Positions 22,919 through 28,659 of a stretch of 64,000 nt of DNA are shown here, one piece after another. Origin of the DNA: Pirellulaceae bacterium. Its GTDB lineage: Bacteria > Planctomycetota > Planctomycetia > Pirellulales > Pirellulaceae. The stretch covers positions 957,621 through 1,021,620 of the forward strand of contig JAHBXS010000002.1 in the NCBI GenBank assembly GCA_019636375.1, given 5' to 3'. Both the position numbers and the translations under genes were made by a program. Below the pieces are notes generated by a model. That model did not search any database. It was not told the DNA's origin and worked only from the letters and a program-made list of their open reading frames with translations. The number at the start of each line of letters is the position of its first letter. The first letter of the stretch is position 1.

Positions 22919-24748
22919 ATGGGCTATCGCAACTTACAACAATGCGTTCGCGACTTGGAAAAACACGGCCATTTGATCCGCTTTGCAGAGCCCGTCAAAG
23001 GCCACCTCGAAATTGCCGAAATCCAACGCCGCTGTTACCTTAACAACGCCCCTGCGGTTTTATTTGAAAAGGTAGAAGGCTGCCATTTTCCGGTTTTAGG
23101 CAACTTGTTCGGAAATTTGGAGCGGGCACGGTTCTTGTTTCGGGACACACTCGAATCGGTCCGGCGGGCGATTGAATTGAAGATCGACCCGCAGTCCTTC
23201 GCCCGCAACCCGCTGCGATATTGGCGAGCCCCGTTGACCGCACTTCACATGCGACCTCGACGGACTCGCCGCGCGGCGGTGATGGCTAACTCTTGTCAGC
23301 TTTCCGAACTCCCGCAAATCGTTTCCTGGCCAGACGACGGCGGGCCCTACATCACTCTCCCCCAAGTCTACAGTGAAGACGCGCGGCAACCGGGCTGGCA
23401 ACGATCCAACCTCGGCATGTACCGAGTGCAAATCGCTGGCAATGATTTCATGCCCGACCGCGAGATGGGGTTGCACTATCAGATTCATCGCGGGATCGGC
23501 GTTCACCACAAGGCCGCGCTCGATGCGAAGAAACCCTTTCGTGTCAATATCTTCGTGGGGGGCACTCCGGCTATGACTTTGTCGGCGGTCATGCCGCTGC
23601 CTGAAGGGATGAGCGAACTCGGCTTCGCAGGAGCCCTCGCCGGGCATCGCATCCCTTTGACGCCCTACCAAGGAACCCATCTCTACGCTGACGCCGATTT
23701 CTGCATCACCGGAGTGGTTGACCCTCAACAGCAAAAACTCGAGGGGCCCTTTGGCGATCACTTGGGCTATTACAGTTTGCGACATGAGTTCCCGCTCTTG
23801 CATGTCGAGCGGGTCTTTCATCGAGCGGGAGCCATCTGGCCGTTCACTGTCGTCGGACGCCCTCCGCAAGAGGACACGACCTTTGGCGAGCTCATCCACG
23901 AGATCACCGGTCCCGTTTTGCCGACCGTGTTGCCGGGTATCAAACAAGTCCATGCCGTCGATGCCGCAGGGGTTCATCCGTTGCTGTTGGCGATTGGCAG
24001 CGAACGCTACGTCCCCTATCGACCGAGTGATCGCCCCAGCGAGTTGCTGACCCAAGCCAACGCGATTCTCGGCCAGGGCCAACTGTCACTCGCCAAACAC
24101 CTGTGGATCATCGACGAAGCCTGCGTTCCCGAATTGGATTTGCACCACATCGACCAATTTTTTATGGCGATGCTGGAACGGGTCAATTGGGAACGCGACC
24201 TCCATTTTCAAACTGAGACGACCATCGACACTTTGGACTATTCGGGGACCGGTTTTAATACGGGTTCCAAAGTCGTCATCGCTGCCGTCGGCCCACCAAT
24301 TCGCGAGTTGCCGCGCGAGGTCCCCAGAGATCTGCGGCTTCCCGCCGGTTTTGGCGACCCGCGTCTGTGCCTACCGGGCGTGCTGGCCGTGAAGGGTCCT
24401 CCATTTCAAGGCGAAGCCGATCGTTTGGAAGAATCGTTCTGTACGAAAATTTCTCTGGACGATCCGCTCAACCGTTTTCCGCTGGTGGTTGTGGTTGACG
24501 ACAGCGAGTTCACCGCTCGCTCGCTGAATAATTTTCTGTGGGCCGTTTTCACGCGGAGCAATCCGGCCCATGACATCGGTGGTATCGGAGCCTTTACAAA
24601 CTTTAAGCACTGGGGCTGTCGCGGCAGCCTCGTCATCGACGCCCGCATAAAACCTCACCACGCTCCGCCGTTAATCGAAGACCCCACCGTCACCCGCCGC
24701 ATCGACTCCCTCGCCACTCAAGGTAGCGAACTGTCGCGATATTTGTAG
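22919..24748 (+). CDS. UbiD-family decarboxylase
   Basis: A 609-residue member of the UbiD family of prenylated-FMN-dependent (de)carboxylases. Features include the N-terminal LRQ-like start (MGYRNLQQCVRDLEKHGHLI), the NLGMYRVQIAGNDF segment, the catalytic-region motif EGPFGDHLGYYSLRHEFPLL with the conserved E-(G)-P-F-G-(D/E), and the C-terminal FTNFKHWGCRGSLVIDARIK. UbiD proteins act in ubiquinone or menaquinone (futalosine pathway) synthesis or on aromatic acids. No ubiX or other quinone genes are near, so the substrate is open. About 490 residues is usual, so this is somewhat long. Confidence 0.9.
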   Translation: MGYRNLQQCVRDLEKHGHLIRFAEPVKGHLEIAEIQRRCYLNNAPAVLFEKVEGCHFPVLGNLFGNLERARFLFRDTLESVRRAIELKIDPQSFARNPLRYWRAPLTALHMRPRRTRRAAVMANSCQLSELPQIVSWPDDGGPYITLPQVYSEDARQPGWQRSNLGMYRVQIAGNDFMPDREMGLHYQIHRGIGVHHKAALDAKKPFRVNIFVGGTPAMTLSAVMPLPEGMSELGFAGALAGHRIPLTPYQGTHLYADADFCITGVVDPQQQKLEGPFGDHLGYYSLRHEFPLLHVERVFHRAGAIWPFTVVGRPPQEDTTFGELIHEITGPVLPTVLPGIKQVHAVDAAGVHPLLLAIGSERYVPYRPSDRPSELLTQANAILGQGQLSLAKHLWIIDEACVPELDLHHIDQFFMAMLERVNWERDLHFQTETTIDTLDYSGTGFNTGSKVVIAAVGPPIRELPREVPRDLRLPAGFGDPRLCLPGVLAVKGPPFQGEADRLEESFCTKISLDDPLNRFPLVVVVDDSEFTARSLNNFLWAVFTRSNPAHDIGGIGAFTNFKHWGCRGSLVIDARIKPHHAPPLIEDPTVTRRIDSLATQGSELSRYL

Positions 24749-24776
24749 AATGAATTTCCAGGACGAAGGTGAAGCT

Positions 24777-25199
24777 CCCCCGGATGAAATCCGGGGGCAT
24801 CGGGGGTTTCGGGGTTCTGGTAGTTTTCTGGTAGCTGGTGCTTAGGCTGCTTAGGCAGGTGGTAACCATCCCCCGGTTAAAAACCGGGGGCATTCGCTGA
24901 ACACGAGACATTCGCAAAACTGAGTGTGTACGATGAACACCAGGCATTCGCAATACCAAGGACATTCGATGAATCGAAGGCATACGATGAATTTTGGGCA
25001 TTCGCTGAACCGGAGGCGAGTGCCCACGATGAACAGGGGGGCATTCGGTGAAACGTGGGCGTTCGATGATCTGTGGACATTCACTGAATCGCGGAGGTGG
25101 AGCAGGAAGCCCCCGGTTTTTAACCGGGGGAGGCTCACTTTCAGCCTAAAGAGACTGGAGCAAACACTCAGAAAATGCCCCCGGGTTTTTAACCGGGGG
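24777..25199. repeat. Four CCCCCGG hairpins framing a tandem array
   Basis: Perfect hairpins of the form CCCCCGGTT...AACCGGGGG lie at 24777-24797 (CCCCCGGAT/ATCCGGGGG), 24870-24890, 25110-25130 and 25178-25199. Two stand left and two stand right of an 18-base tandem array. They differ in loop (GAA, AAA or TTT) while keeping the stems. In translated shadows they produce PPVFNRG-like peptides, so any protein called across them is spurious. Confidence 0.85.
24891..25095. repeat. Degenerate 18-base tandem array, 11 units
   Basis: Eleven consecutive 18-base units fit the consensus CATTCGMTGAAYMSRRGG, with a single seven-base insertion at 25017-25023 between units 7 and 8. Units start at 24891, 24909, 24927, 24945, 24963, 24981, 24999, 25024, 25042, 25060 and 25078. 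There are no constant-repeat/variable-spacer features of CRISPR. Because 18 is divisible by three, the minus strand shows a six-residue periodicity (RMPSIH-like), but no gene start supports a protein. Confidence 0.85.
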
Positions 25200-25240
25200 A
25201 TTTTTACCTCTAAGCCTGCTTGCGGACAGCCCACCATCTC

Positions 25241-25257
25241 CGGCCCAACGGGCCAAC
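25241..25257. repeat. CGGCCCAACGGGCCAAC palindrome (REP-like)
   Basis: A short palindrome, GGCCC-AAC-GGGCC, followed by AGATCA. The same sequence occurs at 36291-36307 and 36331-36347 and, inverted, at 36924-36940 around the REP-associated transposase gene. This solitary copy lies at the edge of the repeat island. Confidence 0.8.
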
Positions 25258-25490
25258 AGATCATCTTCACCGACAATTACCGAAAAACACAATCATTAAT
25301 CAAAGCGGGTGAGTATCTTCAAAAGGTGAAGTCCAGCCATGATTAACTCTTCTCGCAGGTCCGAGACTCGCTAAAAAGCACTGCGTTTAACCAGAGGCGT
25401 ATTCCCCTCAGTTTCTCCACGTATGTTTGGTTTTGGACTATCATATTGGAGAGTTTGCATTTTGTTTTCTTTCGAAGCGGAGGTTTAAAC

Positions 25491-26399: not shown

Positions 26400-27158
26400 C
26401 TATTTGTCCAGCAATGCCTTCACGTCGCTTGGCAACTCAAAATCAGCATCACTCAGGTTGGGATTGAATTCGACCTTTTCGATCTTCATCGACATTTCGC
26501 CTTGCGACATAACGGTGACTTGTTTGTGAGCAACCATAAAGTCGCCAACCTTGCGGTAGTCGGAAGTGAAGGTTTCAACTTCGCCCGCCATTGGATTGCT
26601 GCCGACGGTTTTGAGGACCATCAAAGTTTCTTTGTCGAAAAATCGTTGAGTTGTAGAGGCACCTTCTTTGAATCTCAAGTGATAACAATCCTTGCCGTCC
26701 ACTTTTTGCGAACCAGCGACTTCAATATTTTCCAGTGACTCCAACCACTTCAGTACCGGAAAGACTTCAGACATCTCTTCTGCGCTCGCCCCCAAATCTT
26801 CTTTGTTCATAATTTGAGGACCAGTCATGGCGTTGGTGGCCCAGAATACCTTGCCATCTGTCCCTTGTTTCATTTCGCCGAATTGATCCATGTCAATGAT
26901 GATGACGGCCTTTCCATCCTTTTGTTTCGTCTTAATGGAGGCTTTCATTTCCCCAAAGGGACCTTCCATCGTCATGGTCGCTTCAGTAACCATCGACTTG
27001 GCTTCCTTCATTTTTTCGACTGGCCCCAGAGCAGCCAAATGTTTTTCAATGATTGTCTTGGCATCAGGTAGGTCTTGGGCTGCCGAGTAAGAACCCAACT
27101 GAGCCATCAAACAACACATCAACGCACCCAACCACAAACTTCGTTTCGTAATTTTCAT
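26400..27158 (-). CDS. Secreted LolA-like protein, unknown role
   Basis: A 252-residue protein with a signal peptide (LWLGALMCCLMAQLGSYSAAQ). The mature part reads as a curved beta-sheet protein like LolA/LolB or outer-membrane lipoprotein-sorting proteins: KSMVTEATMTMEGPFGEMKA, AVIIIDMDQFGEMKQGTDG, VDGKDCYHLRFKEG, ETLMVLKTVGSNPMAGEVE. There is no lipobox. Such proteins may carry lipids or lipoproteins across the periplasm; no partner is adjacent. The 300-base divergent region to the fasciclin gene should hold promoters for both. Confidence 0.65.
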   Translation of the reverse strand: MKITKRSLWLGALMCCLMAQLGSYSAAQDLPDAKTIIEKHLAALGPVEKMKEAKSMVTEATMTMEGPFGEMKASIKTKQKDGKAVIIIDMDQFGEMKQGTDGKVFWATNAMTGPQIMNKEDLGASAEEMSEVFPVLKWLESLENIEVAGSQKVDGKDCYHLRFKEGASTTQRFFDKETLMVLKTVGSNPMAGEVETFTSDYRKVGDFMVAHKQVTVMSQGEMSMKIEKVEFNPNLSDADFELPSDVKALLDK

Positions 27159-27459: not shown

Positions 27460-28014
27460 ATGAAGAAGTTGACATTGTTGGTTTGTGGTTTGTTGTTCGC
27501 TGGATTCACCTCACAAGTATCCGCTCAAGAGTGTGCAAGCACATGCCAAAAGGCTTGCCCGAGCACTCAGTTGGTCTCCGCACCGGTCGTGGAAGACAAA
27601 GACATCGTTGACACCGCCGTCGGTGCCGAAGCTTTCTCGACGCTGGTTGCCGCCGTGAAGGCAGCCGGTCTCGTTGATGTCCTTAAGGGTGATGGTCCCT
27701 TCACCGTATTCGCACCAACCAACGAAGCATTTGCAAAAATCCCCCAAGAAACTCTGGAAAGTTTGCTGAAGCCAGAAAACAAGGACCAATTGGTCGCCAT
27801 CCTCAAGTATCACGTGGTTGCCGGTAACGTCATGGCCGCCGATGTGGTGAAACTGACCGAGGCGGAAACTGTCGAAGGTTCAAAAGTCACCATCAAAGTC
27901 GAAGACGGCAAAGTCATGCTGAATGGTAGCTCTCAAGTCGTCAAAACCGACATCAAGTGCAAGAACGGCGTGATTCACGTGATCGACACCGTAATCCTCC
28001 CACCAGCAAAATAG
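27460..28014 (+). CDS. Secreted fasciclin (FAS1) domain protein
   Basis: A 184-residue protein with a signal peptide ([22 protein letters not shown]) and a short cysteine-containing linker ([12 protein letters not shown]). A single FAS1 domain follows. The FAS1 H1 motif is [19 protein letters not shown], the YH motif is [10 protein letters not shown], and H2 is [16 protein letters not shown]1 proteins mediate adhesion or matrix contacts; bacterial ones are secreted. The ribosome site TAGGAG lies before the ATG. A strong terminator follows the gene. Confidence 0.94.
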
Positions 28015-28080: not shown

Positions 28081-28215
28081 GCTGGAGCCCCGAAAATAAG
28101 TGTTTATGGGCCGCTCCTTTAACAGTAAACTAACAATTCGACTCAGAAGGTTGAATCAAGATGTCGATTCAACTTCTACAGGTTTGGTGTTTTTTCAATT
28201 TTTTGGAGAAAGAAA

Positions 28216-28578
28216 ATGTTAGCAAAGAAATGGCTTTGGCTTCCGACCGCTGTCGCCTTGGTGGCGATTGGCTGCGGAACCACAACAACGTCGACCGAGA
28301 CCGGCAATTCGGGAACAACCCAACTCGCAAGCTCGGCGGAATCAGGTGAAGTCGAGGGAATTCACGTCGTCCTCAAAGTCCCCAACATGACGTGAGCGGG
28401 CTGTCCCGCGTTGGTCCAACGCGATTTAGAAAAGATCGAAGGCATTGCCAATATCAAAACCGATCGTGCCACCCGCACTGCCAGTTTTACCCTCACCAAA
28501 CCTGATGTCGACTACAAGGCTAAACTGGAAGAGTTCGCCAAAACGAACTCGAAAATAAAAGGTTTTGAAATTCAGTAG
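28216..28578 (+). CDS. Candidate selenoprotein: MerP-like HMA-domain lipoprotein (MTUAGC)
   Basis: Read through one in-frame TGA (28393-28395, codon 60) this gene gives 120 residues. GGAG lies seven bases before the ATG. The N-terminus is a lipoprotein-type signal (LPTAVALVAIGC), then a Ser/Thr-rich linker. From about residue 50 it is a heavy-metal-associated domain: HVVLKVPNMT-U-AGCPALV, then LEKIEGIANIKTD and the C-terminal strand KIKGFEIQ. HMA domains read GMTCxxC; here the first metal-binding Cys is the TGA and Cys63 is kept. A hairpin with a GGUC loop starts 11 nt after the TGA. Conventional annotation would end the protein at T59. It may bind or reduce a thiophilic metal at the cell surface; that is inference. 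Confidence 0.82.
28407..28423 (+). promoter_or_regulatory. Candidate bacterial SECIS hairpin of the HMA gene
   Basis: CGCGTT-GGUCC-AACGCG forms a perfect stem of six pairs (seven if the loop closes to GUC). Seventeen nucleotides lie between the TGA and the GGUC, close to the spacing in Escherichia coli fdhF. The loop is the same as in the thioredoxin-like gene at 10785-10800, although the stems are unrelated in sequence. An alternative small hairpin, GCGGG-CTGT-CCCGC at 28396-28409, overlaps its left side. Confidence 0.75.
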
Positions 28579-28627: not shown

Positions 28628-28659
28628 AGGCGACGGCTCATTCGATTCGTCGCCTTTTT
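28628..28659 (+). terminator. Rho-independent terminator after the HMA selenoprotein gene
   Basis: AGGCGACG (28628-28635) pairs with CGTCGCCT (28648-28655), followed by a T-run. Its position 50 bases after the TAG at 28578 supports that stop, rather than the TGA, as the real gene end. Confidence 0.88.

What the first reader, a model, noticed from the sequence alone, without database searches (positions are those of the whole stretch)
28216..28578. MerP-like HMA lipoprotein with TGA in place of the first metal-binding cysteine
The frame shows MT-U-AGC where HMA domains have MTCxxC. Everything else about the gene is healthy: ribosome site, lipoprotein signal, uninterrupted reading after the TGA, a stop at 28578 and a terminator 50 bases later. 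Conventional gene callers would lose the functional half. A selenium-containing HMA domain on a cell-surface lipoprotein would be a candidate metal or mercury handling, or thiol-redox, protein. I cannot tell whether this family has been described.
Basis: partly seen in the sequence, partly recalled or inferred. Interest (0 to 1): 0.93.

Follow-up and report, generated by a model that had tools for sequence, protein, structure and literature searches.

The report
Selenium-armed metal-binding envelope protein
A gene of a likely planctomycete bacterium has a TGA codon where the heavy-metal-binding protein fold normally has its first metal-gripping cysteine; the same TGA and a hairpin after it recur in dozens of related genomes, so it is very likely read as selenocysteine and would put selenium into the predicted metal-binding site of a likely cell-envelope protein, of which the protein database searched here holds only a stub.

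Summary
Observation confirmed. Frame 28216-28578 runs ATG to TAG with one TGA (28393-28395) at codon 60, where the HMA motif has its first cysteine. In the window's family, 53 of the 64 genomes (of 241) with a matching domain carry the TGA. Of 98 distinct domains fetched, 71 have TGA at this codon, 26 Cys, 1 was misaligned, none TAA/TAG. A strict hairpin follows in 58 of 70 TGA domains tested and 0 of 26 Cys domains, with compensatory changes. Selection continues past the TGA. The genome has selA, selB, selD and a TCA-anticodon tRNA-Sec. Cys versions lie inside the TGA clade. So it is very likely a selenoprotein: a predicted lipoprotein with a MerP/Atx1-type domain. A canonical mercury system is not supported: MerA is over cut-off in 0 of 25 genomes, though sub-threshold relatives exist in all 25. 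Soft-metal binding, perhaps Cu(I), is my best guess; thiol-selenol redox is the main rival. Relatives fuse the domain to YceI, and one frame carries four such domains with four TGAs. Sec in metal-binding proteins of this type has precedents: a new variant of a known kind.

The parts
28205..28208 (+). Ribosome-binding site GGAG, 7 nt before the ATG
   Evidence: read directly
28216..28578 (+). Selenoprotein gene: 120 residues if TGA60 is read as Sec; 59 residues if it stops there
28216..28275 (+). Signal peptide with lipobox-like AIGC ending at Cys20 (predicted lipoprotein)
   Evidence: sequence; motif rule recalled
28369..28533 (+). HMA domain, residues 52-106
   Evidence: PF00403 E 2.9e-11; model and fold match
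28393..28395 (+). TGA at codon 60, position of the first Cys of MTCxxC; likely Sec
28402..28404 (+). TGT, Cys63, second residue of the UxxC pair; invariant in the 51-row alignment
28407..28423 (+). SECIS-like hairpin CGCGTTG-GTC-CAACGCG (7 bp; apical GGTC), starting 14 nt from the first base of the TGA
   Evidence: SECIS ggttgcaggtctgcacc used in E. coli, quoted in PMC3834832 (passages)
28629..28659 (+). Terminator-like stem GGCGACG...CGTCGCC followed by TTTTT
   Evidence: read directly; not listed by the scan (loop of 12)

Best explanation
The gene at 28216-28578 likely encodes a selenoprotein: its in-frame TGA at codon 60, followed by a hairpin whose base pairing is kept across relatives, would be decoded as selenocysteine by the Sec machinery genes found in the genome, giving a predicted envelope lipoprotein with a MerP/Atx1-type HMA domain whose Sec60-Cys63 pair likely binds soft metal ions, most likely Cu(I). 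Shown by sequence: the TGA, its conservation, the hairpin with compensatory changes, purifying selection beyond the TGA in relatives, selA/selB/selC/selD in the genome, and the HMA domain by profile. Predicted: the fold model, export and lipidation. Inferred: Sec insertion itself. Inferred and least certain: the metal-binding role, in which the selenol-thiol pair would hold or pass on a metal ion outside the cytoplasm, with loop-5 Lys113 (His in most aligned relatives) beside the site.
For: Same TGA at the same codon in 71 of 98 distinct domains, never TAA/TAG. 53 of the 64 family genomes with a match (241 searched) carry it (my count from the listing), and it recurs in other families and classes of the phylum. 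Hairpin: Watson-Crick stem of 5 bp or more whose loop, closing bases included, holds GU, in 58 of 70 TGA domains against 0 of 26 Cys domains; window 7 bp, p 0.006 against synonymous recoding. Covariation: 79.6% of cells paired against 67.5% shuffled (0 of 500) and at most 45.8% in slid registers; 41 cells with both sides changed. pN/pS after the TGA 0.175, before it 0.224, pooled over 23 chosen pairs. Machinery: selA 551 bits, selB 340, selD 264, tRNA-Sec 70.7 bits with anticodon TCA. selA over cut-off in 52 of 60 TGA genomes against 4 of 11 family genomes whose matches lack TGA. Cys forms with codons seen (L005, L057) lie inside the TGA clade. Fold: pLDDT about 92 over the domain; best PDB match oxidised MerP 1osd, then PacS, a plant HMA protein and Atx1. 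Met58, residue 60, Cys63 and Val67 invariant in 51 rows; loop-5 His 38 of 51, Lys 10 of 51. Four tandem domains in one relative, each with TGA.
Against: No direct evidence of selenium. Hairpin stability alone is unremarkable for the window (z -0.2 to -0.8; MFE test p 0.076), and 12 of 70 TGA domains lack the strict stem. Rfam at gathering scores reports only a tRNA in the window. 8 of 60 TGA genomes lack selA over cut-off; all but one (G158, 92%) are under 90% complete. In the 60-genome set G028 has no selB and G002 no tRNA-Sec over cut-off (both under 80% complete). Some pairs show weaker constraint after the TGA (ratios 0.36-0.56 in L093, L095, L104, L113). For metal binding: no metal gene beside it and no conserved neighbourhood found, no MerA over cut-off. 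UxxC and the third Cys in 38 of 51 rows would also suit redox chemistry.
Confidence: 0.6

Rival explanations
1. Same selenoprotein, but a redox domain: Sec60 and Cys63 would cycle between selenol/thiol and a selenylsulfide to reduce disulfides, peroxides or sulfenic acids in the envelope; the HMA fold is reused as a scaffold.
For: UxxC motif; the 2026 inventory holds that most uncharacterised prokaryotic selenoproteins likely serve redox functions (PMC13188914, section 7 parts 1-2 read); a third Cys on strand 3 in 38 of 51 rows; best structural match is oxidised MerP.
Against: Fold and motif are those of metal chaperones, not of a thioredoxin-like protein; the third Cys is absent in the window (Ala89); no conserved partner gene found next to it.
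Confidence: 0.3
2. A selenium or metal reservoir: multi-domain forms would store or pass on selenium, or trap toxic metals, like a bacterial counterpart of selenoprotein P or metallothionein.
For: L072 has four HMA domains with four in-frame TGAs in one 450-aa frame; two-domain forms P0002 and L195.
Against: The members listed other than L072, the window included, show a single TGA domain; a Cys form would be useless for selenium storage, yet Cys forms occur more than once in the clade.
Confidence: 0.07
3. Not recoded: a truncated 59-aa lipoprotein, with a decayed or misread 3' part.
For: The database holds only a 55-aa downstream stub. Termination at UGA would make some truncated product in any case (recoding in E. 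coli 30-40%, abstract start of PMC4513850 seen in the listing). One relative, L073, does look decayed.
Against: Codon-level conservation of TGA across genera, hairpin covariation and purifying selection downstream.
Confidence: 0.02
4. TGA read as tryptophan or another ordinary residue by a changed code or suppressor.
For: Some database entries read it as Trp (MTWGGC), which looks like a code-4 gene-calling artefact.
Against: TGA ends 10 of 34 long ORFs here; relatives without TGA have Cys, not Trp, at this codon; full Sec machinery.
Confidence: 0.01

Closest known systems
NF041115 UxxU_metal_bind, metal-binding (seleno)protein (formerly putative mercuric reductase)
   Same: Metal-binding protein with Sec in the motif; similar over residues 50-81
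   Different: Motif UxxU with 2 Sec (table of PMC13188914), not UxxC; score 28.3 against cut-off 95
NF045683 MerT/CopZ fusion-like heavy metal transport selenoprotein
   Same: A named NCBIfam selenoprotein family whose model matches our HMA domain
   Different: 235-position MerT/CopZ fusion model, score 25.2 against cut-off 375; Pfam finds no MerT part in the window protein. Which residue is Sec there was not checked
Mercuric transport protein MerP, selenoprotein entry of the Global Ocean Sampling survey (PMC2398784)
   Same: A Sec-containing MerP was listed in 2008 (2 sequences, 1 cluster; table passage seen); could be kin
MerP (TIGR02052), periplasmic mercury binder
   Same: Extracytoplasmic HMA fold; best PDB match 1osd
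   Different: 33.5 bits against cut-off 92.55; Cys-Cys (recalled), not Sec-Cys; no MerA over cut-off in the 25 genomes searched
Atx1/CopZ copper chaperones and ATP7A/B metal-binding domains
   Same: Fold, MTCxxC position, tandem arrays in some relatives
   Different: These are cytosolic and have Cys (recalled); ours is predicted exported and likely has Sec
Selenoprotein P (animals)
   Same: Several Sec in one exported protein (listing), as in the four-domain relative
   Different: Different decoding system and, as recalled, an unrelated fold; the window protein has one Sec

Membership tests
Bacterial selenoprotein | In-frame TGA at a conserved Cys position with Cys homologues | tested here: met
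   71 TGA and 26 Cys of 98 domains; Cys forms inside the TGA clade. Rows L060-L071 came from a search pattern that required Cys
Bacterial selenoprotein | Stem-loop just 3' of the TGA with a small apical loop containing G (feature as stated in PMC1088965, passages) | tested here: met
   12 of 70 TGA domains miss the strict form
Bacterial selenoprotein | selA, selB, selC, selD in the genome | tested here: met
   anticodon TCA
Bacterial selenoprotein | Selenium shown in the protein | not testable with these tools
   needs 75Se or mass spectrometry
HMA domain PF00403 | Profile score over the gathering score | tested here: met
   44 against 24.8 bits (Cys written for TGA)
HMA domain PF00403 | Ferredoxin-like beta-alpha-beta-beta-alpha fold | tested here: met
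   the last strand is not resolved as a full strand in the model
HMA domain PF00403 | Two motif cysteines (MxCxxC) | tested here: not met
   first is TGA; met only if Sec counts as Cys
HMA domain PF00403 | Metal binding | not testable with these tools
   needs purified protein
MerP (TIGR02052) | Score over the equivalog cut-off | tested here: not met
   33.5 against 92.55
MerP (TIGR02052) | Mercury system in the genome (MerA) | tested here: not met
   0 of 25 genomes over cut-off 454.45; all 25 have sub-threshold matches, best 398.2, own genome 388.4 bits
NF041115 UxxU metal-binding selenoprotein | Score over cut-off; UxxU motif | tested here: not met
   28.3 against 95; motif is UxxC
NF045683 MerT/CopZ selenoprotein | Score over cut-off; MerT part | tested here: not met
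   25.2 against 375; only HMA found by Pfam
Bacterial lipoprotein | Signal peptide with lipobox Cys | tested here: inconclusive
   AIGC at residues 17-20; no dedicated predictor run. A narrow pattern found a lipobox upstream of 33 of 66 TGA domains

The most novel reading that the evidence does not exclude
A phylum-wide, uncatalogued family of exported selenoproteins in Planctomycetota builds metal sites from Sec-Cys HMA domains, combined freely with YceI or helical domains and strung into arrays of up to four Sec per chain: a selenium-based metal trap or relay working outside the cytoplasm.
Probability: 0.4. Interest if true: 0.85.

Novelty: new variant of a known kind. Interest (0 to 1): 0.72.

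Why it matters
It adds a large likely selenoprotein family that gene callers hide: of 25 database entries read, 11 are stubs after the TGA and 7 have Trp at the Sec position. It would put selenium in a classic metal-binding loop outside the cytoplasm, which makes a clean question testable: does Sec serve metal capture or redox? The four-TGA relative exceeds the 2-3 Sec that the 2026 inventory gives for its small multi-Sec subset (PMC13188914). Natural Cys versions inside the family give matched controls.

Tried and rejected
Pseudogene or sequencing error: rejected by TGA conservation, hairpin and selection. Changed genetic code: rejected, TGA also ends ordinary ORFs here. Canonical mercury resistance: not supported, but sub-threshold MerA-like proteins occur in all 25 genomes searched (best 398.2 bits against 454.45), so a divergent mercuric reductase is not excluded. 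Operon or partner inference: 20 stretches (the window and 19 fetched loci) compared; shared neighbour families were common types (response regulators in six loci, sulfatase-like proteins in four; names by eye) or pairs and triples in two or three loci, some within one genus, one pairing window 26400-27158 with L081; I did not follow these up and saw no conserved operon. A folding-energy test for the hairpin was weak for the window, so a stem test against synonymous recoding was used as well; both are reported. The Rfam scan of the window gave only a tRNA. A first translation of minus-strand loci was in the wrong orientation and redone. A first hairpin alignment had offset rows and was replaced by A5. 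The tree has few columns for its rows and an unsettled bootstrap; I use it only for the scatter of Cys forms, and for its P rows the DNA was not seen.

Full report
OBSERVATION. The frame 28216-28578 on the + strand runs from ATG to TAG with a single in-frame TGA at 28393-28395, codon 60. The protein read through the TGA matches the HMA domain (PF00403, E 2.9e-11, residues 52-106), and the TGA falls on the first cysteine of the MTCxxC motif. A GGAG lies 7 nt before the ATG, the N-terminus is hydrophobic and ends in AIGC (Cys20), and a GC-rich stem with a T run follows 51 bases after the stop. TGA ends 10 of 34 non-overlapping ORFs of 200 aa or more in the window, so it is also an ordinary stop.

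ORGANISM. That the group is planctomycete follows from contigs of the same length: G033:C70 matches CALMEE010000070.1, an uncultured Planctomycetaceae bacterium, and contigs of the lengths of G030:C92 and G045:C129 hold stubs named from Planctomycetes and Pirellulales bacteria (P0045, P0054). Kinship groups are those of the search tool.

CONSERVATION. In 60 related genomes, 14 had a match at E 1e-3 or better; 11 of 16 matches contain exactly one TGA and 5 none. In the window's family, 64 of 241 genomes had a match to the 12-row profile at E 1e-6 or better; by my count of the listing, 53 of these 64 have at least one match with TGA, two of them (G103, G020) with two TGAs; 11 have none, several of these being distant HMA proteins. 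From all loci fetched by then I extracted 98 distinct domains: at the codon of the first Cys, 71 TGA, 23 TGC, 3 TGT, and one row (L130) misaligned. No row has TAA or TAG there; one TGA row, L073, looks decayed, with TAGs elsewhere in its frame. The Cys rows L060-L071 come from a scan whose pattern required Cys, so the TGA:Cys ratio is not a census. Wider searches with a 36-row profile at E 1e-8 found matches in 62 of 396 genomes of the order, 24 of them with TGA, and in 57 of 392 of the phylum, 10 of them with TGA (TGA counts mine from the listings; the rest have no stop). Strong TGA forms outside the family are in G045, G267, G303, G382, G400, G513 and, outside the order, G834. I then read the loci of all eight weaker TGA hits (G646, G550, G858, G899, G588, G569, G717, G784): all place a TGA at the same motif position, some as UxxC and some as UxxxC. 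The window's own genome has a second member, a YceI-HMA fusion on C6 with motif MFUTGC.

HAIRPIN. After the TGA the window reads CGCGTTG-GTC-CAACGCG (28407-28423); relatives read CGCCTCG-GTC-CGAGGCG, CTCGTCG-GTC-CGACGAG, TCAGTGC-GGTCT-GCACTGA, GCTTC-CGTGC-GAAGC and so on. A SECIS used in E. coli is ggttgcaggtctgcacc (PMC3834832, passages seen), with the same GGTC at its apex; a small apical loop with a guanosine is a stated feature of bacterial SECIS elements (PMC1088965, passages seen). Against random synonymous recoding, a Watson-Crick stem of 5 bp or more whose loop, closing bases included, holds GU occurs in 58 of 70 TGA domains (mean 5.7 bp, null mean 2.6; 50 of 70 at p 0.05 or less; window p 0.006) and in 0 of 26 Cys domains (Fisher p 1.3e-14; related rows are not independent). 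One TGA row (L127) was left out because its second TGA stops the recoding. The 12 misses are L004, one domain of L072, L073, L093, L095, L097, L098, L099, L102, L113, L115 and L120. On 58 distinct sequences in one register (rows of L072, L009, L015, L125, L126, L127 and L073 left out as shifted or odd, and rows identical over the 38 bases counted once), 79.6% of cells pair against 67.5% in shuffles (0 of 500 as high) and at most 45.8% in slid registers; 6 of 7 pairs have changes on both sides and 41 cells do. Folding energy alone is unremarkable for the window (z -0.2 to -0.8; p 0.076); across the set the energy test gives mean z -1.32 for 70 TGA domains and -0.52 for 26 Cys domains.

SELECTION. 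Over 23 pairs of related genes that I chose, pooled pN/pS is 0.224 before the TGA and 0.175 after it. The downstream half is under similar or stronger constraint overall; single pairs reach 0.36-0.56 (L093, L095, L104, L113), pairs share sequences, and in two pairs with L042 only 2 codons before the TGA were compared. It is a descriptive figure.

MACHINERY. The genome has selA (551 bits), selB (340), selD (264), all over NCBIfam cut-offs, and a tRNA-Sec of 70.7 bits with anticodon TCA. The selB and tRNA-Sec models also ring weakly in every genome, controls included, so only scores over cut-off count. In 71 genomes searched for selA, it is over cut-off in 52 of 60 that carry a TGA form and in 4 of 11 family genomes whose matches have none. 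The misses are G146, G095, G174, G158, G169, G267, and partial hits in G159 and G513; all but G158 (92%) are under 90% complete. In the 60-genome set, 11 genomes have a TGA form, of which 10 have selB over cut-off (not G028, 78% complete), against 24 of the other 49; G002 (77%) lacks tRNA-Sec over cut-off.

FOLD AND SITE. AlphaFold2 with 51 rows gives pLDDT about 92 over the domain (76.9 overall) and beta-alpha-beta-beta-alpha order, with residue 60 in the loop before helix 1. The best PDB match is oxidised MerP 1osd (E 4.4e-5, TM by target 0.76), followed by PacS, a plant HMA protein and Atx1. In the 51 rows Met58, residue 60, Cys63 and Val67 are invariant; strand 3 has a third Cys in 38 of 51 (Ala89 in the window), and loop 5 has His in 38 and Lys in 10 (Lys113 in the window). 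That loop 5 lies by the metal in HMA proteins is recalled.

ARCHITECTURE. Many members are short proteins with a signal peptide by eye; a narrow lipobox pattern finds 33 of 66 TGA domains, and more show one by eye. Others are YceI-HMA fusions (PF04264 E 1.1e-28 in L016), fusions to a charged, probably helical region (by eye; LTXXQ only below its cut-off in L009), and L072, one 450-aa frame with four HMA domains each with MTUGGC. P0002 and L195 have two. I saw no conserved operon; two- and three-locus neighbour matches were not followed up.

EVOLUTION. In a tree of 97 domains the 66 TGA rows cluster, and Cys rows sit among them: L005 and L057, whose codons I saw, and P0006, P0007, P0009 and P0015, whose DNA I did not see; the TGA label needs 9 changes. 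P0009 differs from L007 over its length by one residue besides Cys for TGA. This is the Sec/Cys exchange expected of selenoproteins.

DATABASES. The profile search found 127 proteins, 120 listed; I read 25: seven have Trp at the Sec position (P0002-P0005, P0008, P0013, P0025), five have Cys (P0006, P0007, P0009, P0015, P0024), eleven are stubs starting after the TGA, P0011 has a different start, and P0019 is a diverged sequence. The window's gene itself is a 55-aa stub (P0023).

FUNCTION. Shown: sequence, conservation, hairpin, machinery genes. Predicted: fold. Inferred: Sec insertion (about 0.95 likely), export. Open: role. I favour soft-metal binding, most likely Cu(I), because fold, motif and invariant Met are those of metal chaperones. 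Mercury resistance proper looks unlikely: no MerA over cut-off in the 25 TGA genomes searched (25 of 60 known), though all 25 have sub-threshold matches, best 398.2 bits against 454.45 and 388.4 in the own genome, and MerP-type models are below cut-off. Redox is the strongest rival.

KNOWN OR NEW. The 2026 inventory of 119 prokaryotic selenoprotein families (PMC13188914, section 7 parts 1-2 of 3 read) has no PF00403 entry in the table read, and a term search of the main text finds none; [quoted passage not shown] It lists NF041115 (UxxU), a MerT-like protein and a cation ATPase with UxxC. NCBIfam also has a MerT/CopZ selenoprotein. The 2008 ocean survey lists a MerP selenoprotein with 2 sequences (PMC2398784, passages seen). 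The 2022 review PMC9312934 (passages) lists similar metal-related entries; deep-Sep PMC12013277 has none of the terms I looked for. Literature searches listed no paper that by title or abstract start describes this family; the library lacks most subscription papers and I could not read supplements, among them the selenoprotein table of two planctomycetes in PMC4807772 (passages seen). So: a new variant of a known kind.

Noticed in passing
L072:6534-7886 (G106:C92:36533-37885): One 450-aa frame with four HMA domains and four in-frame TGAs, plus a Cys-rich stretch (CCASKKACCKACET) between the first and second domain.
   Followed up: partly
L125, L126 (G261, G259) and several loci among L192-L198: A spaced form of the motif, UxxxC instead of UxxC; in other planctomycete groups L194 and L197 have two TGA forms in separate frames, L195 two in one frame.
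   Followed up: partly
L127 (G020:C224), about 3949: Motif MHUGFSU with two TGAs, possibly Sec at both metal-site positions; seen in one genome, not checked further.
   Followed up: no
L073 (G106:C275): A decayed-looking copy: TGA kept but second Cys changed and in-frame TAGs nearby.
   Followed up: no
28145-28177: Near-perfect inverted repeat (GTTGAATC...GATTCAAC core) between the upstream gene's terminator and the ribosome site, read by eye; possible operator.
   Followed up: no
27460-28014: Upstream gene on the same strand reads like a fasciclin-domain secreted protein (recalled, not searched), with a terminator-like stem and T run at about 28050.
   Followed up: no
24690-25346: Frames here read as many short repeated RMP/HRM-like units, suggesting a repeat array in DNA.
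   Followed up: no
Protein database entries P0002-P0005, P0008, P0013, P0025: TGA-HMA proteins stored with Trp at the Sec position; the three of these seven that carry a source name are called copper chaperone CopZ.
   Followed up: yes
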